This document shows positions 15,598 through 59,560 of a stretch of DNA of 64,000 nucleotides, in pieces. Both the position numbers and the translations under genes were made by a program. The notes below the pieces were generated by a model, which did no database searches, was not told the DNA's origin, and saw nothing but the letters and a program-made list of their open reading frames with translations. The DNA lies in NCBI RefSeq assembly GCF_012489685.1, contig NC_080043.1, positions 50,421,127 through 50,485,126 on the forward strand. The letters are read 5' to 3'. Each line of letters opens with the position of its first letter. Positions within the stretch are counted from its first letter, which is position 1. The DNA comes from Lotus japonicus (lineage: Eukaryota; Streptophyta; Magnoliopsida; Fabales; Fabaceae).

Positions 15598-16583
15598 TGT
15601 AAGACCCTAACCTTGCTTATGTATTGCTTAAGTGATTTATCGAATAAAAGTGAAATTCCTAGTGAAGTTTGATTTAATTGCTAAACTGTCTGTGACCTTG
15701 TGTGAATTTTTGAGAGGTCTTAAAGACCTAATCTTAAAAACATTCCTTCATGAGAGTTGTAGCTCTCTGAGTTAGCTAAATTCTCTCGTTGGTTTCAGGT
15801 CATTCCGACCTCTGTAGCCCGAGATAGCCTTGTTTTCTTGACGGAAGGTCAGGCTGTATTGTACTAGCAATTTTGTTAGACGAAAGTTCTTAAGTCCGAA
15901 TTTATTTCTTTAAAAATCAAGAGAAGGAGTTTGCCTTGATTTATTTGAGCCTCTTAATCAATAGTTAGGAGAGTATTTAGTTGGATTTGGGCCAAGTTAT
16001 GAAGGGAGAAGAGAAAAGGAAAACCTAGCCCATGATGCATGCTAGTCGAATTCCATGAGGAAGGAAGGAAGGAAGACTTGTTTGACTTGGTTGTGCTGAA
16101 TTGGTTGACTAATTAGCATGAGTTTAGAGAAAATAATTGGGGTTTAAGGCTCATGATCAAAGGCTGATCAGTTTTGAGACAAGGATTAATAGGAAATTAA
16201 GTGCCATTAATGCCTTGTTCCCATTCAAAAATTGTGAATTGTGTATGCCCTTGCTTGTGCATGTTTTGGCCGTGTATTGAGGGGCAAAAGGGGGATCTTT
16301 GCTTCAGTTTTGAGAGACCTAATAAGGCTGATTGGAAACCTAACCACACACTCTTGTTTTGCCCACACAATTCAGAAGTGAAAAAGAAAGAAAAGAAGAG
16401 AGAAAGGGTGAGAAAGAGTGGCGGCTAGAGAGGAAGAAAGGAGAAGAGCAAAGAGTGAAAGCAAGTGTGATCAAGAGGGAGAGGAGGAGACCAGACCAGG
16501 GTTGAAGGTGCAGCAGAGAGTATCCCTTTCCATTCATCTTTTCCAGAACCAAACCTTCATCCTTCTCAAACCCAACATCCAAG

Positions 16584-18598
16584 GTAACCAGCCCGCTAGT
16601 ACAGATATGGCAGAAAGAAATAATAGAAAAAGAGCTCCACTATAAAGATCTCCATTAGTACGTAAACCAATAGTATACCACCACTGATAAACACCAGAAT
16701 AGGCTATATTTTTGGATTTTTCAAAACTCCATGGACATGCAGAAGAGAAATGCTATTCCCATTCGGACCAAGACATAACTTTACTTGTTCAAATAACAAT
16801 TAAGGTAAAGCAGAGTCAGGAACAACGAATCCCTTTATGATAAACAGATTCATTTTGCAAGTTCGTTATTACGGGTAGTTTCCTACAAAGGATCGGACTA
16901 ATGACGTATACAATACTTGAATTCTCGATATAGATGCTACATAATTGGTTCTTATCCTTCAGAGGTAAGGGGTGGATCTAGTGGGTAGAGTCTAGGTTGT
17001 ATATGATGATGGATTCCTTAGTTAGCATGTCTATAATCTGATCTTAGTTTGGTGTATGATGTATGTTGGGATGAGGGTAGAATGCATGTTTAAGAGTTTG
17101 AAATTTGCAGCCTCAAATTTGATACAAGTTGATACCATGCTACTTGCCATAGTTGCCAATTTGGACTAGTTTTGCCATGTTGATGTTTAGAACGATTTCT
17201 GTACTGAATTTGCATGCTTAGGGCTGAGAATGATGATTCTTAGGTTGATGTTTTGCTTCTGTTGAATGGCCTAGAGGATGGCCAACAAATTTTTCAAGAA
17301 AGGGAGCAAAACCCTAGAGCCATGGAGCTCTCGGCCATGCCCAATTTGTGGGTTTTTGGTGGATTTTCCTTGGCTCTTTGGAGCCAATGTTTGCTGCTGA
17401 TTGCTACTGAAAATTTTATAAATTTGTGATGCTTAAATGATGCCATGATTCAGTATGTTGCTGTTTAGAGAATAACCCAAAAACCTATGCATGAAATCAA
17501 TGAAATTATGCCAAATTTGACTAGGTTTTCATATGATTATATCATGAAATTGGAACATGATCAGTTCTGGAATTTTTACCATATTTGTGAAGCTTGTGTG
17601 ATGCCATGATCAGTAGGTTAATGTTAGCCAAATGACCCTAGGTTTTATGTATGAAAACCATGATTTTATGCTAGATTTGTCTAGATTATCACATGATTTT
17701 AACAAGTAATTTGTAACATGATCTTTGCTGGATTTTTGGAGAGTATATGCTTATGTTTGTTGGCTGGACATTGACTTGTGAATTTGAGATGGAAGGAAGG
17801 AAGTGTTTTAGAAAACCTTGGACCCTTTGGGGTTCGGCTAAGCCACTTTTGTGGCTGTTGGCAAGTTTTCTTCTTTCCGACTCATGCACAAGTTTATGTG
17901 ATAGCTTGATTGGTGGAGTTGCCATGATCTAAGTATTGATATGCATGAGAACATGTCTAAGTGCCTTGGTATGACTTATATGTTTCCTATCTTGATTATT
18001 GCCAAAAGGTCGCTCATCTAGCTGTAATTCCTTTTGGTGCTGTGATTTTTACTATCATTTAAGTTGTATAAGTTTTGTGAAAATGTTAAGACTCTAGGTT
18101 GACTCAATAGAGCCTTTAACAAAGAGAAATGAGAACTTAATCGCTTGCAAGTAAAATGTGAATAATTGGACATAGGTCTAGTGAAGACTATGGGTCATGA
18201 GAACGATGGTATCGTTAGAGACAAACGGTTACTTGCACGCGAGGGTGTTTTGTGAGTTGTACGGTGTGTCCCCACGTGATTGGTTGACTGCGGTCACCTT
18301 GTGATTCTGTGGACGGACGGTGTGTCCCCCCACATGAATGAGGGTTGTACGGTGTGTCCCCTCCGAGAATTGTTCATCTGCGGATGATCGTGATTATGGC
18401 CATTGGTGATGAGGTGGTTGTGTGAATGGTGAGGTCGCTAGCCTAACTGAACTTAGGTGACTGACTGAGATATAATATAAAGTTTACGCTTCTTATACCT
18501 TGTTACTTATGAGTATTACCTGGATATGTGAATGTTATATGAGAACATGAGATCTGACCCTGTTGTTTGTTTATGTGTTATTCTGGGGGGGGGGGCAG
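16584..18598 (+). other. Predicted LTR-internal intron of element C
   Basis: Donor AAG|GTAACC at 16581-16589 and acceptor GGGGCAG| at 18592-18598, directly before the ATG of the C LTR ORF. Called because D has the same arrangement. No transcript evidence. Confidence 0.4.
18261..18361 (+). repeat. Three spaced copies of ACGGTGTGTCCCC in LTR C
   Basis: Copies at 18261-18273, 18317-18329 and 18349-18361. The first runs into a G-box CACGTG (18273-18278). D has the corresponding block GGTTAGGTCTCCACGTGA. Confidence 0.75.
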
Positions 18599-19102
18599 AT
18601 GATGAAGACCAAGAGTACAGTGGTCTCGTGGACGATAGACTTACCTGACCAGCATAAGGACAACGCCTGGCAGTCCGACTCTGCCAAGGCACGTCGCATC
18701 TACGTCGGCAGCGCTACGATCACGGGACGTGACCGGCATGGGAACGTCGTCGAGACTCAGAGCATGGAGTGGGGCAAGGTCAAGATGCCCTTTGTACCTT
18801 GTCGCTTCTTACATCCAGGAGACGAGGGTTCGTGCTCGAACTCTCCACAGAGGATTGCAGGAGGGGAGGTTTCTTCACGGGTGCTCGGGGCACCAGATTG
18901 GTGGGCACGCCTTGGCGACTTTCCAGCTCCGCCTCTCGAGTCCCTTCCAGTTCCTGCTGAGCCTATGGATGTCTTTGCTCCACGGTATGTTGCAGCAGCT
19001 GATGCACCTAGGGATGTCGAGACGGAGGGGCGTGGAGATGCACCGGAGGTCAGGGCTCCTTTGAAGAAGCGCCAGAGACAGTGCGGTTGGCTCGACGAGT
19101 GA
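18599..19102 (+). CDS. LTR-encoded protein of element C (signature W-x2-D-x7-Y-x-G-x6-R-D)
   Basis: 167 codons plus stop, starting MMKTKST right after a G run and CAG. No known family recognised. It shares with the D LTR ORF two Trp 13 residues apart (W11, W24) and D27, Y35, G37, R44, D45 and G48, all at identical spacing; RRIYVG and GRDRHGNVVE align with RRVYVG and GRDIHGRVVE. The C-terminus ends in a basic patch (KKRQRQ) and CGWLDE, matching KKRQCGW in D. No signal peptide or membrane segment. Base composition is GC-richer than the surrounding AT-rich LTR, as coding sequence would be. It is the only intact copy of the three here. Function unknown. Confidence 0.65.
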   Translation: MMKTKSTVVSWTIDLPDQHKDNAWQSDSAKARRIYVGSATITGRDRHGNVVETQSMEWGKVKMPFVPCRFLHPGDEGSCSNSPQRIAGGEVSSRVLGAPDWWARLGDFPAPPLESLPVPAEPMDVFAPRYVAAADAPRDVETEGRGDAPEVRAPLKKRQRQCGWLDE

Positions 19103-19438
19103 CTGATATTACCATGCTGGGGGTTGAGTGTTCGTGGTGTTGATCTATCTTTATCAATTTTGTTTTTCCGGTTTTTGATGTATCGTTGACATAAGGCTTT
19201 AGCCCAAGGATTCATTTATGTATTTGATTATGGTTCCTTTTATTTACGAGTTATTTTATTCAGTAATTCATGTCTTATTTATTCCGCAGATTTATATCGT
19301 AAAGTTTTCAAGAGTTTCGTAATAATTGAACTTTTGTCACTAAGTCAAGATTAATAATTGAACGACGAAAATTCTTTACCAAAATGGTGATGTTTGGTTT
19401 ACTGTGTGACACTCGAGAAATCGGGGCGTTACAAAAGG

Positions 19439-21527: not shown

Positions 21528-22277
21528 TGTAAGGCCCTAGACCTTATTTTTGTAATTCTTTGATGATGGATTGAATAAAATGAGATTTTGGTTGAGTTTG
21601 AGTTTTGACAGATTTTAGCTGTCATCTTGTGTGAATTTTTAGAGGGACTTTACGACCTCATTTTGGAAAACTTTATTCATGAGAGTTGTAGCCCTTTAAG
21701 TTAAGAAAATTCTTCAAGTGAAATCAGGTCATTCCGACCTTTGTAGCTCGAGATACTCGCGTTATAGTGACGGTGGTTCTGGCTGTACAGTACCAGCGAA
21801 TTAATTGAGTTGTTTTTCTTTTAATTCCGATTTAGCATGTGTTTTTACGTAAATGGGCCTAGGTTTTTAATTGATTTCAGAGCTGATTAAGAGCTGATTA
21901 ACGGGTCAAGGTTGATTAGGCTTGGGCTTAAGTGAAGAGAAGAAAATCAAACCCTAGCCCACTAGGGTGTGTGGCCGCCGGTTTTGCATGGGAAAATTGG
22001 GGGGAAAACCCTATTTTTCATCACCATTCAGAATTAGAAACCCCATACAACTTTCACGTGAGAACACAAAGAGAAAAGAGAGAGAAGTCGAGAGAGACAA
22101 GGAGGAGGCCGCCGCTCCAAGCTGCCATCACCGCCGCTCGAAGCTTGCGCATAGGAGGGAGAGTTCGCGAGAGAGAGTGAGACCGCGAGGAGGAGGAGGA
22201 GGAAGAGAGGGTCTTGGACAGCAGCTTTTGATTCTTTCTTCATCACCCTACTTCTGATTTCATCACTCTTAATCAAG

Positions 22278-23575
22278 GTAAGGGCTGGTCCTAGGACTTG
22301 GGTAGTTTGTTAGGGACTTGTTGCTATGTTTGGTTGTGAAAAATCTTGATTTTTGAGGGTTTGCATGAGGGTTTGGGTTGAAGGTTTGCTTGCTGTACTT
22401 TTATGATATGAGACCTATGTGATTTGGTGTTGATTGCTAGAACATAGCTTAAAGCCTTGGGCTGAAAGGGTTTATAACTTAAACTAGAGGTGGAAGTTTC
22501 GCTGCCAGTCTCCTATACTTGACAGCGGACTTCAGAGCCCATTTTCACCTATTTCTGGTCGTCAAAGGAAAAAGTGATTAACATGAAAGTTGTCAATTTT
22601 CGAAATAGCTTTCCAGACATATAAAAATCATAATTTTTGGTTTAGAAATGTGGTCTAGAGGTCGTTTCTAGTAACTGTTACACCTGCTGTTCTTCCTGTT
22701 CCGGACAGTAAGCTTTAAGACCTAATATCACCTAATTCTGGGAATCAAATGAACAAGTGTTTAACTAGATAGTTGTAGATATTTAAAATAGCTTTCCAGA
22801 AAGATGCATTTTGTGGCTCTGTTTTTGTGAAAGTTGTTTCTGCTGTCAATATGTTGAGTTGCGAAAATGTTTGAAGTTTTGTTTAGGAACATGTGTTTAG
22901 AAACATGTGTTTAGGAGATGCTGTGAGTTATATGCTGTTAAGCTTGATCTCATGAGCCTTGGGACTTGCCTTGTGGTGCTGTTGTGACATAATATGCATG
23001 ATTTTGTGTATATGGTTTTTCTTAAATGACTTCACACTATTTAATTGGTTATTTGTACAAAAAGGGTCGCTCACCTAGCTGTAATTCCCTTTTGTGCACT
23101 GTGAATGTTGTGTTGATATTTTTAGTTGTGTGGAGATTAAAAGACTCTAGGATGACTTGACTTAGAGCCTCAATATAAGAGAAAGAGAATTAACTCGCTT
23201 GCAAGTGAACCTTAAATTAAACGGACATAGGTCAGGTAGACTATGGTCCATGAGAATGATGGGCTTGCACGCGAGGGTGATTTGGTGGATGGACCGGTTA
23301 GGTCTCCACGTGATAACCATGATTCAGTCATGGGATAGGGATTGACTGTGTGGGTCCCCTTGTGATTGTTCATCTGCGGATGATCGAGATTGGCCAAGGT
23401 GTTTTGGTGGGTTGTGCGAAGTGAGGAATCCATTAGCCTAACTGACTAACCAATGATGAAATCCTATAAGAGACAATAATCCTTATAAATGTTGATTATT
23501 TATTATGATTATATGCTTTTGCTGTTTGACCTGACCCTGCTTGTTTGTTACTTGTTTTATTTGGGGGGGGGGTAG
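22278..23575 (+). other. Predicted LTR-internal intron (D 5' LTR)
   Basis: GTAAGG donor after AATCAAG; acceptor GGGGTAG immediately before ATG at 23576. The same donor and acceptor bases persist in the diverged 3' LTR (29955 and 31048), and the donor GTAAGGGCTGG also persists in fragment L (minus, 58810-58820). Prediction only. Confidence 0.45.
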
Positions 23576-24114
23576 ATGGTGACCACCACGAAAGTGGAAG
23601 CTATCGTGATCTGGGAGATGGTGTTGCGTGAGCCTGAGGATGACCGGCTCTAGGAGACCGACGGTTCCGGAGAGTCTACGCCGGCGATGCGGAGCTCATA
23701 GGAAGGGACATACATGGGAGAGTCGTAGAGAGGAAGACCCTTGGAGATGGGGCAGTCATGTTTCCTCTCCCTCCTGCTAGATTTGATCAGACTATCGTGG
23801 AGGAGCCGCTCGAGTCCTGGGAGGACGAGGAGGAAGAAGATCCTTCGGAAGACACTACAGCTAAGTCACCGTTGATAGAGGAGAAGAATACAGTGGAGTC
23901 TTCACCACCGGAGCCAAAGGAAGCTAGCCCAGTTGATGACTATGGAGATATGCCCGCATTGGAGCCTGTTCCAGATGTGAGTGAAGAACGTCCGCCTAAG
24001 AAGAGGCAGTGTGGATGGTTCTCGGGATCTGAGGGGGAACCAGCTTATCCATGGAAGAGTCGAGTTACCGAGACTTCAGAGGTCATCTACATTTCTAGCG
24101 ATGATGAGGAGTAG
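23576..24114 (+). pseudogene. LTR-encoded ORF in D 5' LTR, broken
   Basis: ATG at 23576 right after the acceptor-like TAG. It reads MVTTTKVEAIVIWEMV, then an in-frame TAG (DDRL|stop), and a 7-bp gap relative to the 3' LTR copy destroys the signature region. From 23758 the frame is open to the stop at 24112-24114: an acidic stretch (WEDEEEEDPSEDT), KKRQCGWFSG, and a terminal SEVIYISSDDEE. That last run has the shape of a SUMO-interaction motif. Homologous to 18599-19102 and 31049-31595. Confidence 0.65.
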
Positions 24115-24480
24115 AGTCGAGATTTTCACATGTGGGAGCGTCCTATGAGAGCTACATCGGATTTTACATTTTTTTTCTCTATTATTGGAACCTTATTTAT
24201 TTCCATTTGGAGATCATTTATGTATTTTGGTATAGGGCTTCGCCCTCGGATTCAGAGTTATGTTTTTGGATTATTTTCCTCGTTTTAATTAAAGGTTATT
24301 TTAAGTTAGAAATGCAAGATTTATTTATTCCGCAAATTTGTTCGTAAAGTTTCAAGAGTTTCACAATAATTGAGTTTTTGTCAATAATTGAAGATTAATT
24401 AAATGAACGGCGAAAATTCTTTTTGAAAATACACGTGATTGGTTACTGTGTGACACTCGGGAAATCGGGGCGTTACATTG

Positions 24481-24757: not shown

Positions 24758-26305
24758 ATGCCTCCGAGACAGGACCTAACCAATGCTCAGCTTGCTCAAG
24801 CAATGGCACAGCTGGCTCAGGTGATGACCCAGCAGGCTGCCACTGCTGCTGCCCAAGCCGCAGCACAACTTTAGTGGGAAGCTGAAGAGAACACCAGGAG
24901 GGCTGAAGAGGATGCCAGAAGGGCACAGAGGGCTGAGAGGGAGCTGGCACAGGACCAGATCCGTATGAGGACTGACTTCAACCGCCATGGACCACCCAAG
25001 TTCTAAGGTGAAGTTGAACCCGAGAAAGCTGATCTGTGGATTCAGGAGATGGAGAAAATCTTTGAGGCTCTCCACACACCTGATGCTGAGAAGGTGGACT
25101 TGGCGACCTTCATGCTGAAGGGCGACGCTGAGTACTGGTGGAGGAGTGCCAGACAGTTGATGACTGCTAACCATGTGCCCATCCCTTGGGAGTCTTTCAA
25201 AAGGGCTTTCATGGAGAAGTACTTCCCAAAGACTGCCAGGGAAGACATGGAGAATCAATTCCTCAACCTGAGACAGGGGTTGATGACTGCAGGGGAATAT
25301 ACTGCAAGACTGGAGACCCTGTCCAAACACTGTCGCTTTTTCCAAGTGCAAGTGGATGAGGCATACTTATGCAACCGATTCATGAGGGGCTTGAGGAATG
25401 ACATTGAGGAGTCCGTGAGGCCATTAGGAATCAGAGTTTTCCAACAGTTGGTAGAGAAAGCCCGTGAGGTGGAGTCAATGAAGAATCGCCAGAGGGGCAA
25501 GTCTGACGGCGGAGGTCCGATCTGTTCTAGACAGAGACAGACTGGAAGATTTGAGGGACAGATACAAGCTGGTAGGTTTGACAGGGGAAAGGCACCGATG
25601 AGGAAGCCTTACCAACGTCCTGCTGATAAGGTACCGTTTGCTGGAAGGGGTGCAACCCCTGCTTCTGAACATGATGTCGTCTGCTTCAAGTACAACCAGA
25701 ATGGACACTATGCGAATAAGTGTGGGAAGGAGATTATATGCTGGAAGTGCCATAAACCAGGGCACATTGAGAGGGACTGCTCTAATGCTGCAAAGGCCGA
25801 GCCAGTGTTGAATACCGCTCGAGGAAGGCGACCTACTGCTCCAGGTCGTGTGTTCGCAATGTCTGGCGAACAGGCTGCTGTGACTGACGATCTCATTCAG
25901 GGTACATGTGTTATCGCTGAAACTTCATTAATGGTCTCATTTGATTCGGGTGCTACGCACTCATTCATTGCTGAGGAGTGTGTGAAGAAGTTAGGGTTGC
26001 TAACGGCTGATTTACCCTTCGATTTGGTGGTTACTACCCCTGCCGCCGATCGATTAGTTACGCGCATGACATGCTTGCAATGTCCGTTGATCTACGAGGA
26101 TCGGAAGTTCCTTGCGAACCTCGTCTGTCTAGGGCTTAAAGAGCTCGATGTGATTCTGGGAATGGACTGGTTGGCACAGTATCACGTTCTTTTGGATTGT
26201 GCTAATAAGGCCGTAGTCTTCCCGGATACTGGCGTTACGGATTACTTGAATTCGTACAACTTGGGAAAGGGTTCAACCAGCATTCGTGAACTCTATCGTA
26301 GCTGA
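24758..26305 (+). pseudogene. Element D gag and protease, broken
   Basis: Start MPPRQDLTNAQLAQ at 24758. In-frame stops at 24872-24874 (TAG) and 25004-25006 (TAA), then open to 26305. The gag core has DAEYWWRSARQ and YFPKTAREDMENQFLNLRQG. Two zinc knuckles follow: the first, CFKYNQNGHYANKC, has lost its second Cys; the second, CWKCHKPGHIERDC, is intact. Protease motif SFDSGATHSFI is intact, followed by VILGMDWL. A +1 shift near 26286-26305 separates it from RT. Role: capsid and proteolysis in a Tekay-type polyprotein, not functional as it stands. Confidence 0.88.
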
Positions 26306-29204: not shown

Positions 29205-31959
29205 TGTAAGGCCCTAGACCTTATTTTTGTAATGCTTTGATGATGGATTGAATAAAATGAGATTTTGGTTAAGTTTGAGTTTTGACAGATTTTAGCTGTC
29301 ATCTTGTGTGAATTTTTAGAGGGAGTTAACGACCTCATTTGGGAAAACTTCCTTCACGAGAGTTGTAGCCCTTTAAGATAAGAAAATTCTAGAAGTGGAA
29401 TCAGATCATTCCGACCTTTGTAGCTTGCGATATTCGCGTTATAGTGACGGTGGTTCTGGCTGTACAGTACCAGCGAATTAATTGAGCTGTTTTTCTTTTA
29501 ATTCCGATTTAGCATGTGTTTTTACGTAAATGGGCCTAGGTTTTTAATTGATTTCAGACCTGATTAAGAGCTGATTAATGGGTCAAGGTTGATTAGGCTT
29601 GTGCTTAAGTGAAGAGAAGAAAATCAAACCCTAGCCCACTAGGGTGTGTGGCCGCCGGTTTTGCATGGGAAAATTGGGGGGAAAACCCTATTTTTCATCA
29701 CCATTCAGAATTAGAAACCCCATACAACTTTCACGTGAGAACACAAAGAGAAAAGAGAGAGAAGTCGAGAGAGACAAGGAGGAGGCCGCCGCTACTAGCC
29801 GCCATCACCGCCGCTCGAAGCTTGCGCATAGGAGGGAGAGTTCGCGAGAGAGAGTGAGACCGCGAGGAGGAGGAGGAGGAAGAGAGGGTCTTGGACAGCA
29901 GCTTTTGATTCTTTCTTCATCACCCTACTTCTGATTTCATCACTCTTAATCAAGGTAAGGGCTGGTCCTAGGACTTGGGTAGTTTGTTAGGGACTTGTTG
30001 CTATGTTTGGTTGTGAAAAATCTTGATTTTTTAGGGTTTGCTTGAGGGTTTGGGTTGAAGGTTTGCTTGCTGTACTTTTATGATATGAGACCTATGTGAT
30101 TTGATGTTTTTTGCTGGAACATAGCTTAAAGCCTTGGGCTGAAAGGGTTTATAACTTAAACTAGAGGTGGAAGTTTCGCTGCCAGTCTCCAGAAAGGTAT
30201 CATACGTGATTTTTGGTTGAAAGATGCATTCTGTGGCTCTGTTTTTGTGAAAGTTGTTTCTGCTGTCAATATGTTGAGTTGCGAAAATGTTTGAAGTTTT
30301 GTTTAGGAACATGTGTTTAGGAGATGCTATGAGTTATATGCTGTTAAGCTTGATCTCATGAGCCTTGGTACTTGCCTTGTGGTGCTGTTGTGACATCATA
30401 AGCATGATTTTGTGTATATGGCTTTTCTTAAATGACTTCACACTATTTAATTGGTTATTTGTACAAAAAGAGTCGCTCACCTAGCTGTACTTCCCTTTTG
30501 TGCACTGTGAATGTTGTGTTGATATTTTTAGTTGTGTGAGGAGATTAAAAGACTCTAGGATGACTTGACTTAGAACCTCAATATAAGAGAAAGAGAATTA
30601 ACTCGCTTGCAAGTGAACCTTAAATTAAATGGACAAAAGTCAGGTAGACTATGGTCCATGAGAACGATGGGCTTGCACACGAGGGTGATTTAGTGGATGG
30701 ACCGGTTAGGTCTCCACGTGATAACCATGATTCAATCATGGGATAGGGATTGACTGTGTGGGTCTCCCTGAGTGATTTGTGGATGGACCGGGTAGGTCTC
30801 CACGTGACTTGGGTTGACTGTGTGGGTCCCCTTGTGATTTTTCATCTGCGGATGATCGAGATTGGCCAAGGTGTTTTGGTGGGTTGTGCGAAGTGAGGAA
30901 TCCGTTAGCCTAACTGACTAACCAATGATGAAATCCTATAAGAGACAATAATCCTTATAAATGTTGATTATTTATTATGATTATATGCTTTTGTTGTTTG
31001 ACCTGACCCTGCTTGTTTGTTACTTGTTTTATTTGGGGGGGGGGGTAGATGGTGACCACCACGACAGTGGAAGCTATCGTGATCTGGGAGATGGTGCTGA
31101 GTGAGCCTGAGGATGACCGGCTCTGGGAGACCGACGGTTCCGGGGTCCGGAGAGTCTACGTCGGCGATGCAGAGCTCATAGGAAGGGACATACATGGGAG
31201 AGTCGTAGAGAGGAATACCCTTGGAGATTGGGGCAGTCATGTTACCTCACCCTCCTGCTAGATTTGATCAGACTACCGTGGAGGAGCCGCTCGAGTCCTG
31301 GGAGGACGAGGAGGAAGAAGATCCTTCGGAAGACACTACAGCTGAGTCATCGTTGATAGAGGAGAAGAATACAGTGGAGTCTTCACCACCGGAGGCAAAG
31401 GAAGCTAGACCAGTTGATGACTATGGAGATATGCCCGCATTGGAGCCTGTTCCAGATGCGAGTGAAGAACGTCCGCCTAAGGAGAGGCAGTGTGGATGGC
31501 TCTCGGGATCTGAGGGGGAACCAGCTTATCCATGGAAGAGTCGAGTTCCCGAGACTTCAGAGGTCATCTACATTTCTAGCGATGATGAGGAGTAGAGTCG
31601 AGATTTTCACATGTGGGAGTGTCCTATGAGAGCTACATCGGATTTTACTTTTATTTTTCTCTATTATTGGAAACTTATTTATTTCCGTTTGGAGATCAAT
31701 TATGTATTTTTGTATAGGGCTTCGCCCTCGGATTCGGAGTTATGTTTTGGGATTATTTTCCTCGTTTTAATTAAAGGTTATTTTTAATCAGAAATGCAAG
31801 ATTTATTTATTCCGCAAATTCATTCGTAAAGTTTCAAGAGTTTTGCAATAATTGAGTTTTTGTCATTAGTTGAAGATTAATTAAATGAACTGCGAAAATT
31901 CTTTGTGAAAATACACGTGATTGGTTACTGTGTGACACTCGAGAAATCAGGGCGTTATA
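29205..31959 (+). repeat. Element D 3' LTR
   Basis: 2755 bp, TGTAAGGCCC to GGGCGTTATA (terminal CA mutated to TA). Against the 5' LTR it lacks about 0.3 kb after 30189 and has gained a tandem copy of the GGATGGACCGG..TAGGTCTCCACGTGA block (about 30696-30820), giving two G-boxes (30715-30720, 30801-30806). Confidence 0.92.
31049..31595 (+). pseudogene. LTR-encoded ORF in D 3' LTR (one frameshift)
   Basis: ATG at 31049 directly after the G run and TAG. The signature is intact here: W13, W26, D29, Y37, G39, R46, D47, G50, with RRVYVG and GRDIHGRVVE. One extra T near 31226 (GGAGATTGGGG against GGAGATGGGG in the 5' LTR) shifts the frame; the continuation from 31221 is open to 31593-31595 with the acidic region, ERQCGWLSG and the terminal SEVIYISSDDEE. 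The 5' copy is damaged elsewhere, so the parental element probably had one full-length ORF of about 180 codons. Function unknown. Confidence 0.65.
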
Positions 31960-32881: not shown

Positions 32882-33598
32882 TGTAACATCCCACCAACCA
32901 GGTAACGACCTCATAGGAGATACGAAACCCTAGAAAGTCGGAATAGGCAAATACGCACTAACAATCTAACTATACTATATAATATATATATATAATATGT
33001 GCGTGTGTGTATGCATGTATGTGTGAATATTTTACTATATTGCTTGTTTGCACGTAAACCGAGACGTCGGTCAATCGACTTTAAATCGACCCGGCAATAA
33101 AAGTATCAAAGACATGGTCACAATAACCTCAAAAAGAGGATGAACTTGAGATAGAGGTAGGATAGGCTAAATAGATGATCTGATCACATTTCTTGACAAT
33201 GATAAATGCATTGTCTCAGAGTGATTCAAACCCAAACCAAGCTAAAAGAGTGATACTTTAACCACTCTAAGGAGATGATATTGAACCTTGAGAGGGGAAA
33301 TACACCCTAATTTAGCACTAACAAAGTTAAACCAGTATAATATTGCATCAGTTTTGTCCCGACATGGAAAGTAATAAAGAAATTGACCAGTCGGAACCCT
33401 AGGATTTGTGTGCCGCTGACTCAAGCATGCAATCAGCCATGACACCCTTCCTTCATCACCTTTGATGGCTTCTAAAGCTTTCCAAACTCCTCCCACGCAA
33501 CCATAAGCCCTAGGTTAATCACCATGCATGAAAACCTATTGGTGGTGCAACCTTGAAAATGCTTAAGCTTGGATTAGCCATTTAATCACTTTTCAGCC

Positions 33599-33606
33599 TA
33601 TATAAG
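33599..33606 (+). promoter_or_regulatory. TATA box of LTR E
   Basis: TATATAAG in CAGCCTATATAAGGAG, followed by a C/A-rich leader typical of plant transcript starts. Confidence 0.6.
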
Positions 33607-34977
33607 GAGTACCATTCGACTCCACACGACCACAGCATCACACTAAGCCCCTTGAAACCCTCAGAGAGTGCCCAGAGAGCTTGACAGAAGAGAAAAACCG
33701 AGGGGAAGTTCAGAAACTTCTTCTCTTCGAATCTCTCAAACCAGAGAGAGTTAGACCCTGATTCTTGTCCCATTGTGTTCCTGGAGAGGAGAGGAAGAGG
33801 ATTGACTATTCGTGGTCAAGTTTTGGTCGAGAAACGAAGCTTTCACCATCTCCGGCAAAGCTCCAGCGACCCCTCAACCTGTAACGCGCCTTTTCTCTCA
33901 TCACCGAGCACTTCAGCCACACCCACGAGAACCATTCAACTCCCAGGACCTGTAGATCAAGTTCCAGTACCCGGAGTATCACGGCGGTGACAATCTAGGA
34001 TCCTCCGATCATCTTCTCAGGCGAGTTCTGCAACTTCCGGCGAGGTAGCTTCTGAAACACGCCAATTTTAGCTTGTTTTCGATCCAAATTGATCCCCTGA
34101 GCATGTTAGGACATAGATAGGAAGCTTTAGACTAGTTTAGAGCCATGAATCGTTAGGAATCAATGAGAACCGATCCAAGGTCTTTGGAGCTCGAAGAAGC
34201 CATCGGGTTGAGCTTCTGAGAGTGAATTGTCCTGCAAACTAGATTAGTTTATGCTTCTGAAACGTCATAGGAGCTTTTAGGATAGTTAATTGTAGTGTTA
34301 GAGCCCTGAAGAGGAAAGCCCCAATTTCACCTTGTAGGCAGCCCCTGAAATCGTGAATTGGCACTGTTAGAGTGTCCAGAAGTTGAAATTGATGATTCCA
34401 TTGAACTCAGAAGGTAGAAAACTATAGGAATAGACTATTAGATGTTAACATTAGGCTTAGTTTATAGATTTCTTAGTTTGCAAGTAGACTTTGAATTAAG
34501 TGCTTAAAATAAGTGGTTCTGAACCTGAGAACAATAAAATGAGCTTAATAGAACCTGAAACCAGTAGGATAATAACCAGGTAAAGACTTAGGAATTGTAA
34601 CTTAGTCATAGAATTAATTTACATAATATGGCTTAAGTAATTAGAAATAATTAAGTAGAAATATTTTAGCTTAAGTTAGATTATTAGATTAATGACTTAG
34701 AAATAATGAAATCAGATTATGAGGATGTATAGGACATGAGGACAGAAATGGTAACATGGAAAGAATTATAGGAATTAGCTATTAGAAAATGAAATTAGTT
34801 TGCATAATATAACTAGATGATTAAGTTGTTGTTTTTAAATTAGTAAATAACCTAAGTGTATGATTTAGTGACTTAAAACTAATTAGGTCAGATTAATGGA
34901 CATGCAAAATATAGGTTACACCCTAGTTAGTTGAGATCAAGGCTAAGTTAGAATGACGCTAGTTTGATAGCAAAAAG

Positions 34978-34979
<2 letters not shown>

Positions 34980-35033
<54 letters not shown>
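34980..35033 (+). repeat. (TAA)n microsatellite in LTR E
   Basis: About 17-18 perfect ATA/TAA units. Probably polymorphic between individuals. Confidence 0.97.
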
Positions 35034-36276
35034 GTAACGAACGATTTAATGCCTCGATTAGCTTATCTTGACCCAAGCATAATCAATGGTGTAGAGGGAG
35101 CTATCTCAGACACACACGATCCTCTATTGGTAAAGGTTAAAGGTAAGGGGGGTTATACAAGACCTTGTCTTGGTACACAACTCATAAGTTGAACGTTATT
35201 ACGGTAGAAAGCATATTATTACTTGCTTATATGTTATTGGATGCATGATTGGATGTTGTGCTTGAAGAGTGAATGTTGGATGAATTATTGTGCTGAATTG
35301 CTGTGACTGTGATCCATGATTGAAGTGATGCACAGTAGAAAGGGATGATAGTACACTATGGGATATAGTGGTACTTAGGATTATAAGTGACATGGTATTA
35401 GGATTGTTCCTGATACGCTAAGCATCTGAGGTAGTGGGAAGAGGGAAAAGATAATCCCCGATTTAATGTGTTATTGATACTTGCTTTTGAAAATTAAACC
35501 ACCTATAACACCTTAGGATTACCCGTAGGATAGGTAGAGCAATAAAATGAATAATGATAGTAATATAGGCAAGGCAAGTGAGCCCTTTTCTCTAAGCAAT
35601 TAAAAGTACATAACCATTAACGGCGGATTAGAACTCCCGCTTGCATTCCTAGAACTACTTGATCTTATCAAAGATCCCACCTCTATAATTACTATGGTGT
35701 ACTTACTTTAAGTAAGGCAGCAGATGCTTGTTTCTAATTTATTAGAAACTTAATGGAAGTATAAGGGGGAGATGATTGATATTTGAAAATACACTTAAGG
35801 AGCAATAAGGAGTAGGAAAGTACTGACACTACCACTAAGAGAGTGGGAATACAGAGACGCCAAAGGTGGTCATGTTCAGAGATGAATTGACCCAGGATTT
35901 ACACGGCAGTACACCTCTCATGTCTGTCTCGGCAGGACCCCTGAGGTCGGGATTGGCATGATGTTTAAGGCAAAGAGTTGCGTTGTGTACTTCTGTCTGT
36001 GAGCTACTGAGCGATCATTGTCTGGTAAAGAGTGGACTGTAAGGAGTGTCCATGTTCTCGAGACGACTTTCCGAAGATAACGAAGCAATAGCTTCGGGCC
36101 CTTAAATTATACTCATCACATGATAAATAAAATAATAAAAAGGTTGGCGATGAACTCACCATTTCCTACGAAATAGTGAGAGAAGTCAATTCAAAGGACG
36201 GAGGAATAAGGTTGGCGATGAACTCACCATTTCCTACTTGCACTTATTTTTATAAAAGCAGATAACGGGTGTGACA

Positions 36277-36600
36277 ATGAGCTTCCCTCCAGTCCTCGCG
36301 ATCCACGCTGATTTCCCGTCCCGTGCTGGCTGGCATGTTGACCCAGTTACCGGATACTGCTTTTATCAGGGACTCACAATTTTGTGGTGCAGGGATCCAG
36401 GAGCAGGACACATCGGTTTCCTAGTGACACTCCCGATGGTGTTCTCATTCTTCCTGCCGACCCACGCTGAGCACGTTGGTCCGCGGAGTCCAGGTAGTCC
36501 ACAGGTGCCATATTCACAGGCAGGCGAGCCTATGGAGACCGGAGAGCCTATCCCAGCAGTACCAGTCACCGTGGTGAGCCCACCGAGATCCCCATATTAG
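36277..36600 (+). pseudogene. LTR-encoded ORF of element E (5' LTR copy, truncated by a stop)
   Basis: ATG at 36277, 15 bases after an acceptor-like CTTATTTTTATAAAAGCAG. 107 codons plus TAG at 36598-36600. It contains W19, D22, Y30, G32, R39 and D40: the same W-x2-D-x7-Y-x-G-x6-R-D spacing as the C and D LTR ORFs although the overall sequence is very different. Further stops follow here, but in the truncated 3' LTR the position of the TAG reads CAG and the frame stays open to 38772. The stop is therefore a mutation of this copy. Function unknown. Confidence 0.55.
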
Positions 36601-37244
36601 AGAGTTCCGTAGACCCAGGAGTCTATGGGATCTCCTCCACCCCGGAGGAACTAGTCTTGCTTTCGGGTCACAGCCTGCAAGCGAGTGAGATCCCCTAGAT
36701 TCTCCCGAGATGCCAGGATTTACCGTCGCAGATTTCGGAGAGGCGAGGCGTCCGAAGTCAGGGAGTCAGAGCAGTGTCCGACAGCAGAGCCAGGGTCAGT
36801 GCCAGCAGCCAGCGGGGGAGTCAGTGAGGAGGATCCGAAGGAGGAAGATCCGAGGGGATGAAGCCATATGGTCCGAGTTTCTGATGATGATGATTTATGT
36901 TTTTGTTTCTGTATTCTGATTACCTGTACCAGACTATGTGTTTGAGGGCACTGTGTCCTCTTTACCTGTACCAGACTTATGCGGTGGATCCGTCCACCAA
37001 CTATGCATGCTATGTATGATTTGTGTGGTTTATATCGTTATTCCCGTAGTCCTAAGTTAGGAGTTTGAAATACCTAGGGATGTTAAGGGAAACGCTCGAG
37101 TACTCTTTACTCTTGCGATCCCGACCTAATGAGGAAACCCTTAGTAGAAAAAAAAAAGGGTTCACTATTTCACGTAGCGTGCTCACTCCTGAGTGATGGA
37201 GTTAGGGAGAACTCGTCACTTGAGGAAGGGGACGCCACACGGAT

Positions 37245-37353: not shown

Positions 37354-38471
37354 ATGACGGCAGCAATGGCAAGAGCTATTGAACAACTTACCGCTTTCTT
37401 GACCGAGCAAGCGGAAAGAGCTGGGAATGGAGCTGGACACCAACCAGCGGAAGAGGACGTCTACCACGGTTTGGACAAGTTTCTGAAGCGAGATCCGCCA
37501 AAGTTTGAAGGGGGTTACAATCTCGACGGAGCGTATGAGTGGATCCGAGAATGACATAGGATTTATGAGACGTTAGTATGTGCAGACCCGCGTAAGGTTG
37601 CTTTTGCTAGTTATTTACTTTCAGGAGAAGCTAGGACATGGTGGACTGGAGTAAGAGGAAGGATAACTCTAGCGGAAGGAGCGATAACCTGGGAGATCTT
37701 TAGGAATGCATTTCTGGAAAAGTACTTCCCGGCGGACGGAAAGGGGAGGAAAGAGATGGAATTCTTGGAGTTAAAGCAAGGTATGATGTCAGTAGGAGAG
37801 TATGCAGCTAAGTTTGAAGAACTGTGTCGGTTCCACCCGCATTATAGTGCAGCAGCTGATGAGACCTCAAAGTGTGTCAAGTTTGAATATGGACTGAGGC
37901 CAGACATCAGGACTGTTGTGGGACATGACCAGATTCGGAACTTTGCTACTCTGGTAGAGAAGTGTAGGATTTTTGATGAAAACGAGAAGTCTAGGAAGGA
38001 GTACTTGAGGGGCCAAGGTGTTAACAAGGCCCCGAAGAAGAAGGAAGAGAGGAGGAAGCCATACTTTAAGCCACCCGAGCAAGTGAGGAACCAGTTCGGA
38101 AATCGAACAGGAGGATTTAGATTCCACAACAGGACAAGTGGGTTCAATCCTAACAATCCATTATGCGTGAGACGCCGAAAGAATGGACATCGTGCTCCGG
38201 ACTGTAGAGCCGTGTTAGGGGAACAGGCTAGTACACAGGCCAGCGGAAATGGGAATCGAAACCCTACCGCTACAACAGGCAAGGGAAGTAGTAGAGGAGC
38301 ACCGGCACCGAGAGATAACCGGAAGTTTGGACAACCCGCGAATAAGGGGAAAGTGTTTGCGATGACACTGGAGGAGGCAGTTGAAGCGCCAGAACTTATC
38401 CAAGGTACGTGTTATGTTGATAGTTTTCCTTTAAGTATTTTATATGATTCGGGTGCAACGCATTCGTTTAT
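37354..38471 (+). pseudogene. Element E gag and start of protease
   Basis: ATG at 37354 (MTAAMARAIEQLTAFL). Gag core: PPKFEGGYNLDGAYEWIRE, a TGA stop at 37552-37554, then ARTWWTGVRG, FLEKYFPADGKGRKEMEFLEL and YGLRPDIRTVV in the same frame. The zinc knuckle reads CVRRRKNGHRAPDC, with the second Cys replaced by Arg. The protease begins LYDSGATHSFI and is cut off immediately by the deletion junction at about 38471. The frame happens to run on into the LTR ORF, so the apparent fusion protein is a by-product of the deletion. Confidence 0.85.
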
Positions 38472-38772
38472 ACCAGTCACCGTGGTGAGCCCACCGGGAT
38501 CCCCATATCAGAGAGTTCCGCAGACCCAGGAGTCTATGGGATCTCCTCCACCCCGGAGGAACTTGTCTTGCTTTCGGGTCACAGCCCGCAAGCGAGTGAG
38601 ATCCCCTAGATTCTCCCGAGATGCCAGGATTTACCGTCGCAGATTTCGGAGAGGCGAGGCGTCCGGAGTTAGGGAGTTAGAGCAGGGTCCGACAGTAGAG
38701 CCAGGGTCAGTGCCAGCAGCCAGCGGGGGAGTCAGTGAGGAAGATCCGGAGGAGGAAGATCTGTGGGGATGA
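38472..38772 (+). pseudogene. C-terminal part of the E LTR ORF, open reading
   Basis: The same frame as 36277-36600 but with CAG in place of the TAG, giving about 60 more residues than the 5' copy: an Arg-rich run (ARIYRRRFRRGEA) and an acidic end (SEEDPEEEDLWG), stop at 38770-38772. Arg patch and acidic end parallel the C and D proteins. Confidence 0.5.
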
Positions 38773-39171
38773 AGCCATATGGTCCGAGTTTCTGATGATT
38801 ATGATAATGATGATTTATGTTTCTGTTTCTGTATTCTGATTACCTGTACTAGACTATGTGTTTGAGGGCACTGTGTCCTCTTTATGTGTTGTCTTCTTAC
38901 CTGCAGACTTATGCGGTGGATCCGTCCACCAACTATGCAGGCCATGTATGATTTGTGTGGTTTATATCATTATTCACGTAGTCTTAAGTTAGGAGGTCGA
39001 AATGCCTGGGGATGTTAAGGGAAACGCTCGAGTACTCTTTACTCTTGCGATCCCGACCTAATGAGGAAACCCTAAGTAGGAAAAAAAAAGGGTTCACTAT
39101 TTCATGTAGCGTGCTCCCTCCTGAGTGATGGAGTTAGGGAGAACTCGTCACTTGAGGAAGGGGACGCCACA
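38472..39171 (+). repeat. Element E truncated 3' LTR
   Basis: Starts at CCAGTCACCGTGGTGAGCCC, corresponding to 36566 in the 5' LTR, and runs to ACGCCACA. The first ~3.7 kb of this LTR is gone with pol. A few substitutions and a short insertion distinguish it from the 5' copy. Confidence 0.88.
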
Positions 39172-57166: not shown

Positions 57167-58175
57167 TGATACGCCCCAAGTTGATGCAAGGGCTGCAATG
57201 GATCGTCTAGGATTGATCTTGGATGATGAGAACTCTGAAATGTGAGAAAGAAGAAGAAGAATTTCGTGATGGAAGGGAAATGGACAGAAAAGAGGGGAAG
57301 TTTTAGTGAAATGGAAGATGAAGACTTCACACAAAGGTGGTGACAAACCCTTGATAAGCCTAATTCTTGAATCACTCAAGAACTATGAGAATCACTCTCA
57401 CAAATCTGAATCACTCAGAAAAGAAAATACTAATTCATTCATAATCTGTCTATTACATTGAAGGAGTGGTCCTTATAAAGAAGAAGGAAATTCAGCCTAG
57501 TTACAAAAAAATGATGAGGTGTAATTTCTCTAGAAGAATCCTAGGCTAGGAGTTAGAGGAAGATAGTGATATGCTTCAGCCCTGAACGTGTTTTAGTGGC
57601 TGATTGCTTCATGTAACTCCCTTTCTTGATTGTTATTCTGACCAGGAATATAGCATTCAATGCTCTTTATGAACTTAATTTCCCTTTCTTTGTAACTCCA
57701 TTCTTGCTTTGAAAGCTCTTCAATCCTTTGACTTTGCTGATGTAACTCCTCCATTCAGAACTTATTGAAATTCAAACACATTCAAAGAGTTTTAAGAAAG
57801 GAATGGATCCCTCCCTTTAAGCCCTTCATGCGCCACATGCAAACACACACCACTTGAAGTGGATTAAACACACTAAAATAAAATTCAGCAACATAATGCA
57901 TTTGGATCCAACTTATTCAATTGGTCCTTTGCATTTTATTGAAATAAAATAAAACAGAACATCACATGGCAGCCCCTATGCGTGGGCTGGCTCTTCTTCT
58001 TGGGCCTGAATGATCATCATGATTTTTGGTTCCATCTCTTCTACCACTTTGTCTTCAAGAATGGTTGCCACTACTTGCTGAAGAGTCTCTTTGCCTTTTT
58101 AGCTCTAGCCCTTGTCATTGGTCCTCCAAGTCCTTTTAGGCTCCATGACCCTTGTCCTTGTCCTTGTCCTCATCA
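57167..58175 (-). repeat. Element H2 5' LTR
   Basis: 1009 bp, same type as the H1 LTR; slightly shorter through small deletions such as GTTTTAGTGG and TTGCTTTGAAAG. Confidence 0.9.
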
Positions 58176-59560
58176 GATATCATCATATAAAAATCTCACA
58201 AAGGTCCCTAATCACATGTTACTAACATTTCCAACAATTTCTCAATTTAGTGTTTTTGGACAACAGGTGCAGCATGTACTAAAACTGGTCTACAGACCGC
58301 AATACTTAGCCACAAAATTCACATGATACATGACTGGAAAGATAATTCGAAAATCTACAACTTTCATTTTAATCACTTTTTCATTTGATGACCATAAACA
58401 GTAAAAGGGGCTCTGAAGTCCGCTGTCCAGTACAGGAAACTGGCAGCGAAACTCCCATGGCTCTATGGTTTTCAAAAATAATTTTCGTTCCTTCCCCTTT
58501 GATCATGGCAATCTTGGTACAGCCCCAACAACCCAAATATCCACTCAAAATTTCAGAACCAAACATTTAGCAAGGATCATGTTATAACAAGTGCAAAATA
58601 GCACAAAACTTAACAAATACCATGGCAACTCGCATAAATCATAGATTCAGATCATAAACAACGTTTGAGGATCATATTCATGGCTTTTCAAGAGAAAAAT
58701 TCCAGCAAGCCAGCATGTACAGGAAATCATGCAAAAACAGTCCAAAACTCAAGTTGTTTCTCATGGCAATTCATGGCATATTCCCTAAAGAACCTACCCA
58801 TTCCTAGAACCAGCCCTTACCTTTGTCCTTAGGCTTGAAGAAAAGATGAAATTGAAGAGCAAGGTTCTGGTTTCTCTCCTCTTCTCCCACGCGTAACCCT
58901 TCCTCTCTCCCTCTCCCTCGCGAACTCCTCCTCTCTCTTGCGCGAACACGTCGACGGTGGTAGGGCTTGGGACGGTGACGGCTAGGTGCAAGGGGAAGGT
59001 TTCTCTCACTCTTTCTCCTCTGTTTTTACGTGTTTCAGAAGTGCACAAGGTTTCGTTCTTCAGAATAGTGTGAAAAAAACCCTTTCCCTCCCAAAACCCT
59101 ACATAGCCCGCGTCCCCTCTCTCCCTCTCTTGGGCTAGGGTTTGTTTTCTTCCAAGCTCGACCCAAGTCAAAACCCTTGACCCAATCACTTAAGAACTTA
59201 CTCAGGCCTGAAACCAATCAAAACCCTCAGCCCTTTTTAGTAATATCACGATCACACTCGGAATTGAAAGGAAACAAATCAATTAAATTCGCTGGTACTG
59301 TACAGCCAGAACCATCGTCACTAAACCGAGGATATCTCGAGCTACAGAGGTCGGAATGACCTGATTCCACTTCGAGAATTTTCTAGACTTAAAGGGCTAC
59401 AACTCTCAGGAAGGAAGTTTTCCCAAATGAAGTCGTTAAGACCCTCTAACAATTCGCACAAGTTGACAGTTCTAATCTGCCAGTTATCAAACATTAGCTA
59501 AAACTTCAATTTTATTCAAACTTCCATAAAATTGTTCCAAATTGAACTTAGGGCCTTACA
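58176..59560 (-). mobile_element. Fragment L: start of a Tekay-type LTR related to D, cut by H2
   Basis: Minus strand, begins TGTAAGGCCC at 59560. It shows the D/C blocks: GAGAGTTGTAGCCC, AGGTCATTCCGACCT (59348-59362), GGTTCTGGCTGTACAGTACCAGCGAA, a GC-rich leader (about 58860-58990) and donor-like AAAG|GTAAGGGCTGG (58810-58824). It continues past the donor into the predicted intron and is cut at 58176, before the ORF would start. Confidence 0.82.

What the first reader, a model, noticed from the sequence alone, without database searches (positions are those of the whole stretch)
18599..19102. A protein family encoded inside the LTRs of three different retrotransposon families
The C LTR (18599-19102), D LTRs (23576-24114, 31049-31595) and E LTR (36277-36600 with 38472-38772) each hold an ORF. 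Overall similarity is low, but all three have W-x2-D-x7-Y-x-G-x6-R-D with exactly the same spacing: C W24-D27-Y35-G37-R44-D45; D W26-D29-Y37-G39-R46-D47; E W19-D22-Y30-G32-R39-D40. C and D also share a Trp 13 residues earlier and KKRQ-CGW near the end; all end basic then acidic. Each sits late in its LTR. A coding gene in both LTRs would lie in the 5' leader and the 3' end of the genomic RNA. I know of no described plant LTR protein with this signature.
Basis: partly seen in the sequence, partly recalled or inferred. Interest (0 to 1): 0.9.

Follow-up and report, generated by a model that had tools for sequence, protein, structure and literature searches.

The report
Protein genes hidden inside retrotransposon LTRs
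In the legume Lotus japonicus, large families of jumping genes carry a protein gene, preserved by natural selection, inside their repeated ends (LTRs), so even an isolated end left behind in the genome may still be a small gene; what the protein does is unknown.

Summary
The window lies in a plant genome that I identify as Lotus japonicus. The LTR ORFs are real. The C ORF (18599-19102) is intact in a solo LTR flanked by a 5-bp duplication. Genome searches listed 150-151 matches for each of the C, D and E ORFs (capped lists; C and D may overlap).

Diverged copies (dS above 0.2) show protein-level purifying selection: dN/dS 0.21-0.44 in the true frame, 0.83-1.55 in the other sense frames; the most recent pairs give 0.58-1.28. 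One element has the same intact ORF in both LTRs and matching target-site duplications.

C and D are one homologous family with no recognised domain. E is a separate protein: the motif said to unite E with C and D is at chance level. So two LTR-encoded families, not one. Both D copies and the E copy in this window are broken.

I infer one donor spliced to either the LTR ORF or gag, untested with RNA. Function (probably nuclear regulation) is inferred. I found no such gene described in plant LTRs, in open-access papers only.

The parts
15598..19433 (+). C family: solo LTR (TGTAAG...GTTACA), TSD AAAGG/AAAGG
   Evidence: sequence
18599..19102 (+). C LTR ORF, 167 aa, intact in this copy; cag (acceptor-like) directly before the ATG
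   Evidence: dN/dS of the family
16965..16976 (+). C splice-donor-like block GTAAGGGGTGGA; in 5 relatives preceded by CCAAG or CTAAG. In this copy an insertion with GTAA at both ends lies just upstream
   Evidence: relatives
21528..24477 (+). D element 5' LTR
   Evidence: PBS tggtatcagag follows
22278..22288 (+). D 5' LTR splice-donor-like block, AAG|GTAAGGGCTGG (putative leader exon before it)
   Evidence: relatives
23576..24114 (+). D 5' LTR ORF region, interrupted in this copy; tag directly before the ATG
   Evidence: relatives open for 181 aa
24748..24760 (+). start of putative gag exon: acceptor-like TTCTATTTCTAAGCAG just before, gag ATG at 24758
   Evidence: same in L012 and L028, missing in L011; similar in L144
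29205..31959 (+). D element 3' LTR (TSD GTGCG/GTTCG, one mismatch)
31049..31595 (+). D 3' LTR ORF region, interrupted in this copy (70-aa opening, then 118-aa opening from 31239)
32882..37239 (+). E element 5' LTR (TSD CTCCT/CTTCT, one mismatch); PBS tggtatcagagc follows
33606..33612 (+). E TATA-like box (tatataa); TATA-like in 4 of 5 aligned relatives, the fifth reads ctaaaa
34045..34050 (+). E putative splice-donor position (GTAGCT here, a weak site; GTGAGT or GTAAGT at the matching place in 4 relatives)
36277..36600 (+). E LTR ORF, 107 aa before a stop in this copy; several relatives open for 193-201 aa
   Evidence: dN/dS of the family
37354..37356 (+). E gag ATG, shortly after acceptor-like TTAATTTCAG|GAAAGG
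38472..39171 (+). E 3' LTR fragment (second half of the LTR ORF and the LTR end), left by a deletion running from gag-protease into the LTR
58162..59560 (-). truncated LTR of a D-related family (inner end approximate) with the same donor-like block, cut off before the ORF position

Best explanation
The C/D LTRs carry an accessory gene of the retrotransposon: LTR promoter, non-coding leader exon, intron of about 0.7-1.5 kb, and an ORF exon whose ATG directly follows an AG. The E family carries a different protein in the same slot (putative intron about 2.2 kb). Shown: the ORFs are coding and selected, they lie in the LTRs, and donor-like and acceptor-like sequences recur across copies. Inferred: transcripts from the LTR promoter splice one leader donor either to the AG before the LTR ORF (accessory mRNA) or to the acceptor before gag (gag-pol mRNA, which skips the LTR ORF and the PBS), while unspliced RNA is the genome. 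Also inferred: the protein is a small nuclear regulator (beta-rich N-terminal part, acidic linker, basic cluster, in some subfamilies a SUMO-interacting-like tail) acting on the element's own LTR chromatin or transcription. Being in the LTR puts the gene in both LTRs and leaves it in solo LTRs.
For: Coding: dN/dS falls as dS rises, from 0.58 to 0.32 (C, 25 copies), 1.28 to 0.25 (D, 9), 0.81 to 0.34 (short D, 9) and 0.95 to 0.21-0.24 (E, 17 distinct copies). Wrong sense frames give 0.83-1.55 and 0.99-1.53. Two LTRs: L144/L145, TSD CCAAG twice, LTRs 99.0% identical over 2917 columns, identical intact 134-aa ORF in both; 8 same-strand pairs of hits 7.48-7.71 kb apart in the table. Splicing: block AAG|GTAAGGG.TGG (up to 2 mismatches) upstream of the ORF in 22 of 30 loci (7 of 8 C, 13 of 20 D, both ends of L144/L145) and in 5 of 8 further C upstream regions; AG directly before the ATG in 72 of 74 C/D ORFs; GTGAGT or GTAAGT at the matching place in 4 E relatives; acceptor-like sites before gag in D and E of the window and in L144. 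Nuclear: basic cluster after residue 80 in 71 of 74 C/D ORFs; [VIL][VIL]x[VI][SP][SG][DEG] in the last 40 residues of 21 of 74, in 11 of 33 sequence clusters. Five related proteins are annotated in L. japonicus.
Against: No RNA was seen: splicing, start site and poly(A) site are read from sequence. No genomic copy with the leader exon joined to the ORF was found (none; one match, L109, whose sequence before the ORF still aligns to LTR intron), though a spliced accessory RNA need not be reverse-transcribed. The G-run before the acceptor AG is unusual. The donor-like block was not found in 8 of 30 loci and 3 of 8 C regions, in part because too little upstream sequence is held; the E window copy has a weak GTAGCT there. 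In E an AG stands directly before the ATG in only 12 of 38 distinct ORFs (within 12 bases in 37, which chance often gives). Of the C/D loci holding a PBS and gag start, L011 lacks the gag acceptor. The antisense -1 frame also has a low ratio (0.39-0.51), though above the true frame each time. 22 of 33 clusters lack the SIM-like tail. Structure models are poor (mean pLDDT 46.7 and 55.6), so the nuclear-regulator step is a guess from composition.
Confidence: 0.5

Rival explanations
1. The LTR ORFs are selected retrotransposon genes, but the product acts in the cytoplasm on the replication cycle (RNA chaperone, packaging or particle factor), not as a nuclear regulator.
For: Basic patches could bind RNA; selection and both-LTR location fit any accessory function. 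No domain assigns a compartment.
Against: Acidic and SIM-like C-termini in several subfamilies and compact basic clusters suggest a nuclear protein; this is composition only.
Confidence: 0.25
2. A self-limiting factor: protein made from solo LTRs and old copies dampens new transposition as copy number rises (dosage control, as recalled for the yeast Ty1 truncated Gag).
For: The gene survives in a solo LTR (C in the window), so dosage could rise with copy number.
Against: A purely inhibitory protein is hard to keep under purifying selection across many lineages; this is an argument, not a test.
Confidence: 0.1
3. The ORF is only translated from the 5' leader of genomic RNA as an upstream ORF that controls gag translation; the splice-like sites are not used.
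For: In the 5' LTR the ORF lies upstream of gag; no spliced RNA or spliced copy was seen.
Against: Selection is on the amino-acid sequence of a 130-200 aa protein, and donor-like and acceptor-like sites recur.
Confidence: 0.1
4. The ORFs are recent captures of a host gene, or chance ORFs.
For: No known homologue explains them.
Against: Protein searches returned no named homologue other than L. japonicus proteins (candidate lists were limited to word-sharing proteins), there are many diverged subfamilies, and dN/dS is far below 1 in the true frame.
Confidence: 0.03

Closest known systems
Additional/extra ORFs (aORF, eORF) of plant LTR retrotransposons, incl. the sunflower and grass Tekay 5' aORF
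   Same: Extra element-borne protein of unknown function, upstream of gag, with predicted nuclear location in the Tekay cases, diverging fast between species (PMC11728184, passages; PMC7264820, parts 1-2 of 3; PMC6317226, passages).
   Different: The review places such ORFs in the internal region. Here the ORF lies inside both LTRs, has leader-exon and intron signals, is 130-200 aa, and is found in a solo LTR. The large survey counted only ORFs of at least 250 codons (PMC6317226), so it would miss these. The sunflower 5' aORF is about 400 aa and at the 5' end of the element; the passages seen do not say whether it lies in the LTR, so an LTR location there is not excluded.
MMTV superantigen (Sag) and other retroviral genes lying in or overlapping the LTR
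   Same: An accessory protein encoded within an LTR (recalled; only search listings seen).
   Different: Animal retrovirus and an unrelated protein (recalled); here plant Ty3/gypsy elements. No similarity test was made.
Chromovirus pol ORFs that run into the 3' LTR (Beta vulgaris Bingo elements)
   Same: Protein-coding sequence inside a plant LTR (PMC3605345, passage).
   Different: There the tail of gag-pol extends into the LTR; here a separate gene lies wholly inside it.
VANC anti-silencing proteins of Arabidopsis VANDAL transposons
   Same: A model for an element-borne nuclear protein acting on its own family (recalled; only a search listing seen).
   Different: DNA transposons (recalled); no similarity was tested; the comparison is of possible function only.

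Membership tests
Protein-coding gene (as against chance ORF) | dN/dS well below 1 in the proposed frame and lowest there of the six frames | tested here: met
   the antisense -1 frame is also below 1 (0.39-0.51)
LTR-resident gene | Same intact ORF in both LTRs of one element with TSD | tested here: met
   L144/L145, (one element read at both ends)
Single C/D/E protein family | Similarity between C/D and E profiles above shuffled controls | tested here: not met
C/D protein family | C and D share a conserved domain | tested here: met
   10 invariant columns in 18 sequences; tblastn and genome searches cross-match members
Known Pfam / PHROG / PDB family | Credible match to a library model | tested here: not met
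   Only weak matches: PP_kinase_C 0.013 (2 of 18 members), Forkhead_N 0.26 (1 of 16), PDB 0.85 and 0.055; PHROGs none, C/D only. NCBIfam not searched.
Ty3/gypsy LTR retrotransposon (D element) | gag, protease, RT, RNase H, integrase; LTRs; PBS; TSD | tested here: met
   Retrotrans_gag, RVP_2, RVT_1, RT_RNaseH; rve only 19.1 bits, below its cut-off 32.6; TSD with one mismatch
Chromovirus, Tekay/Del clade | Chromodomain after integrase; RT in Tekay clade | tested here: inconclusive
   No Pfam chromodomain match in the window piece or the pol end of L145 (SH3_Tf2-1 matched). RT phylogeny not run.
Plant LTR-retrotransposon additional ORF | Extra ORF besides gag-pol conserved in most copies of a family | tested here: inconclusive
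   Many open copies, but lists are capped at about 150 and ranked by similarity, so the share of all copies that keep the ORF was not measured
Spliced leader / alternative acceptors | Transcripts joining leader exon to the LTR ORF and to gag | not testable with these tools
   Only sequence signals available

The most novel reading that the evidence does not exclude
Plant Ty3/gypsy LTRs can be complete, selected, intron-containing genes: one leader donor in the LTR is spliced either to an LTR-encoded regulatory protein or to gag, every solo LTR remains an expression unit for that protein, and two unrelated proteins have come to occupy the same slot in different families of one genome.
Probability: 0.45. 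Interest if true: 0.88.

Novelty: new variant of a known kind. Interest (0 to 1): 0.72.

Why it matters
LTRs of plant elements are normally treated as regulatory, non-coding DNA, and solo LTRs as inert scars (general knowledge). If many of them are small genes under selection at the element level, long LTRs get a partial explanation, solo LTRs may act in trans, and annotation that searches only between the LTRs, or only for ORFs of 250 codons or more, misses a class of transposon proteins. It also gives a concrete test of how plant Ty3/gypsy elements separate genomic RNA from gag mRNA.

Tried and rejected
One family across C, D and E: rejected. Known domain: no credible match. Fold search with the low-confidence C/D model: best E 0.09, no match at 0.001; WRKY chains appear at E 0.3-0.9 with rmsd 10-13 and were set aside as noise. 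Relatives in IMG/VR: none confirmed. Named relatives outside Lotus: none in three protein searches, whose candidates are limited to proteins sharing words with the query; one unnamed hit, P0005, on contigs of at most 909 bases. Genomic copies of a spliced junction: none. Paper searches.

Rows dropped or double: L081 (no ORF found near its match) and L084 (a 21-base slip of mine) were left out. Minus-strand loci were read in the wrong orientation and re-oriented from then on. L062-L064 were left out of the C dN/dS set as chimeras. Only copies with long open frames entered dN/dS (25 C, 9 D, 9 short D, 19 E), so decayed copies are under-represented. Two E copies had been fetched twice (L033=L089, L034=L090); searches count them twice, and repeats the table with 17 distinct copies (ratios 0.95, 0.46, 0.48, 0.34, 0.21, 0.24). 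The E counts (40 ORFs) also hold these two; one search gives 38. The 74 C/D ORFs exclude ORFs under 100 aa and L014, L021 and L085 (start not at the usual ATG), and count L144 and L145, two LTRs of one element, separately.

Full report
What was checked. The window's genome is held as G000 (553.7 Mb, 65 contigs; window = C3:50421127-50485126). Protein searches returned 'uncharacterized' proteins of Lotus japonicus on contigs of nearly the same lengths (P0001-P0004; P0006), so I take the host to be L. japonicus.

Anatomy in the window. C is a solo LTR, 15598-19433, with AAAGG on both sides; its ORF at 18599-19102 is open for 167 codons. D is a Ty3/gypsy element: LTRs 21528-24477 and 29205-31959, TSD GTGCG/GTTCG, PBS tggtatcagag, gag, protease, RT and RNase H, with a sub-threshold integrase match. 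Its two LTR ORFs are both interrupted, leaving one 70-aa and two 118-aa ATG openings. E has a 5' LTR at 32882-37239 and a 3' LTR fragment ending at 39171, TSD CTCCT/CTTCT. Its ORF stops at 107 aa in this copy, and a deletion joins gag-protease to the second half of the LTR ORF. A truncated further LTR, related to D, lies on the minus strand at about 58162-59560 and is cut off before the ORF position. The C and D LTRs share blocks at 73-78% identity; the E LTR matched neither C nor D at E 1e-3.

The ORFs are abundant. Genome searches listed 151 (C), 150 (D) and 150 (E) matches, the number scored being capped at 150, out of 1096, 960 and 305 first-look candidates; the C and D lists may overlap. 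Among the 30 best-scoring rows, 25 have no internal stop (a ranking that favours intact copies; the share over all copies was not measured). N-terminal probes of diverged members reached further subfamilies. In the table eight same-strand pairs lie 7.48-7.71 kb apart, as two LTRs of one element would. One such pair was read at both ends (L144/L145): TSD CCAAG twice, LTRs 99.0% identical over 2917 columns, the same intact 134-aa ORF in both, PBS and gag following the first.

They are coding. I computed Nei-Gojobori dN/dS on codon alignments of copies with long open frames (repeated with two double-fetched E copies removed). The ratio falls with divergence: C (25 copies) 0.58 to 0.32, D (9) 1.28 to 0.25, short D (9) 0.81 to 0.34, E (17 distinct) 0.95 to 0.21-0.24. 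This is the pattern expected of element genes, with free drift after insertion and selection along the lineage. Shifting the frame removes it: +1 and +2 give 0.83-1.55. In one search two antisense frames give 1.09-1.47 and the third 0.39-0.51; the true frame (0.24-0.38 there) is the lowest in each of the four groups. Choosing open copies biases against stops but not toward silent changes. The constraint is not simply N-terminal: the first 75 alignment columns against the rest give 0.18 and 0.52 in C and 0.22 and 0.28 in E, but 0.42 and 0.18 in D and 0.48 and 0.31 in short D.

One family or two. C and D align with 10 invariant columns in 18 sequences (M1, W11, L15, D21, Y35, G37, G59, P64, R69, R160). 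The part shared by all subfamilies is the first ~75 residues. E aligns with itself (16 sequences) but not with C/D. hhalign gave probability 1% on an unrelated stretch. With 77 and 36 sequences and N-termini only, 102 of 200 column shuffles did as well. The shared spacing is therefore no evidence of kinship; with so few diverse sequences (effective number about 2.2-2.6) a very remote kinship is not excluded either. The low-confidence models place beta strands at similar offsets, which cannot carry weight. Three C-type copies (L062-L064) combine an N-terminal part only 41-42% identical to C with a C-terminal part 89-91% identical to C, so recombination within the ORF occurs.

Splice signals, not in the original finding. 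In C/D LTRs the block AAG|GTAAGGG.TGG stands 0.7-1.5 kb before the ORF. Allowing two mismatches it was found in 22 of 30 loci: 7 of 8 C, 13 of 20 D, and both ends of L144/L145; and in 5 of 8 further C upstream regions. Some of the misses hold too little upstream sequence. For eight representatives the 12 positions around the junction are 96% identical, against 41-54% in the flanks; the representatives were picked by an exact match to ten bases there, so that contrast is largely built in. AG immediately precedes the ATG in 72 of 74 C/D ORFs. In E, five relatives could be aligned to the window (three of eight fetched regions did not align; L111 ends before the donor): a TATA-like box in four of the five, and GTGAGT or GTAAGT in four, where the window has GTAGCT. 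An AG stands directly before the E ATG in 12 of 38 distinct ORFs and within 12 bases in 37, the latter being weak evidence. Before gag stands a second acceptor-like site: TTCTATTTCTAAGCAG in D, TTAATTTCAG in E, TTCTATTTCAAGCAG in L144; also in L012 and L028, but not in L011. AATAAT or ATTAAA signals occur between the ORF and the LTR end in C and D, and poly(A)-like signals in L144; none of the three forms was found in E. The simplest reading is one leader donor with two alternative acceptors, which would also let gag-pol mRNA skip the LTR ORF and the PBS. I have no RNA data. A search for genomic copies of the spliced junction found none and one false match.

The protein. No credible Pfam or PDB relative, no PHROG match for C/D, no credible fold match, no confirmed relative in viral contigs, and no named relative outside Lotus; P0005 comes from short unnamed contigs. 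Basic clusters occur after residue 80 in 71 of 74 C/D ORFs. A sequence such as VIYISSDDEE, LVEISSDDED, VIEVSSGDED or VLEISGDEED lies in the last 40 residues of 21 of 74 ORFs, 11 of 33 clusters. From memory this resembles a SUMO-interacting motif with an acidic/serine extension. I infer a nuclear regulatory protein and put that step at somewhat under one half.

Literature. [quoted passage not shown] Sunflower Tekay elements have a conserved 5' aORF of about 400 aa, predicted nuclear and without sequence similarity to grass 5' aORFs (PMC11728184, passages); the passages do not place it relative to the LTR. Beet Bingo chromoviruses extend the ORF into the LTR (PMC3605345, passage). A survey of Del LTRs reports a highly conserved CpG island near the 3' end of some monocot LTRs (PMC4029996, passages); whether that is coding is an untested lead. 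Phrase searches for ORFs or introns inside LTRs gave no plant case that I could see in their listings. The library holds open-access papers only.

Verdict. The ORFs are real, selected, LTR-resident genes; the claim of one family is half right; the gene organisation is more interesting than the motif. I score interest at 0.72: surprising for transposon specialists and directly testable with long-read RNA, but with function and taxonomic spread unknown.

Noticed in passing
window 37756-38772: Deletion in the E element fuses gag-protease in frame with the second half of the LTR ORF, giving a 338-aa chimeric open frame.
   Followed up: partly
window 16588-16964: About 380 bp inserted in the C LTR with GTAA on both sides, at the splice-donor-like block that is uninterrupted in relatives such as L006.
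   Followed up: partly
L062, L063, L064: LTR ORFs that join a diverged N-terminal part (41-42% to C) to a C-terminal part 89-91% identical to C: recombination between LTR subfamilies inside the ORF.
   Followed up: yes
G000 C1:6677120, C1:13879722, C3:85013908, C4:63926424 and others: Many hits of a 146-aa-frame subfamily and of a 134-aa-frame subfamily share identical scores, suggesting recent bursts.
   Followed up: no
window 18757-19215 minus strand: A 152-aa antisense open frame overlaps the C ORF; one antisense frame has a low dN/dS (0.39-0.51), which shared degenerate positions may explain; not examined further.
   Followed up: partly
P0005: A relative of the short-D proteins on contigs of at most 909 bases from an unnamed source; it may come from another species.
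   Followed up: no
[quoted passage not shown] it could be worth testing for coding.
   Followed up: no
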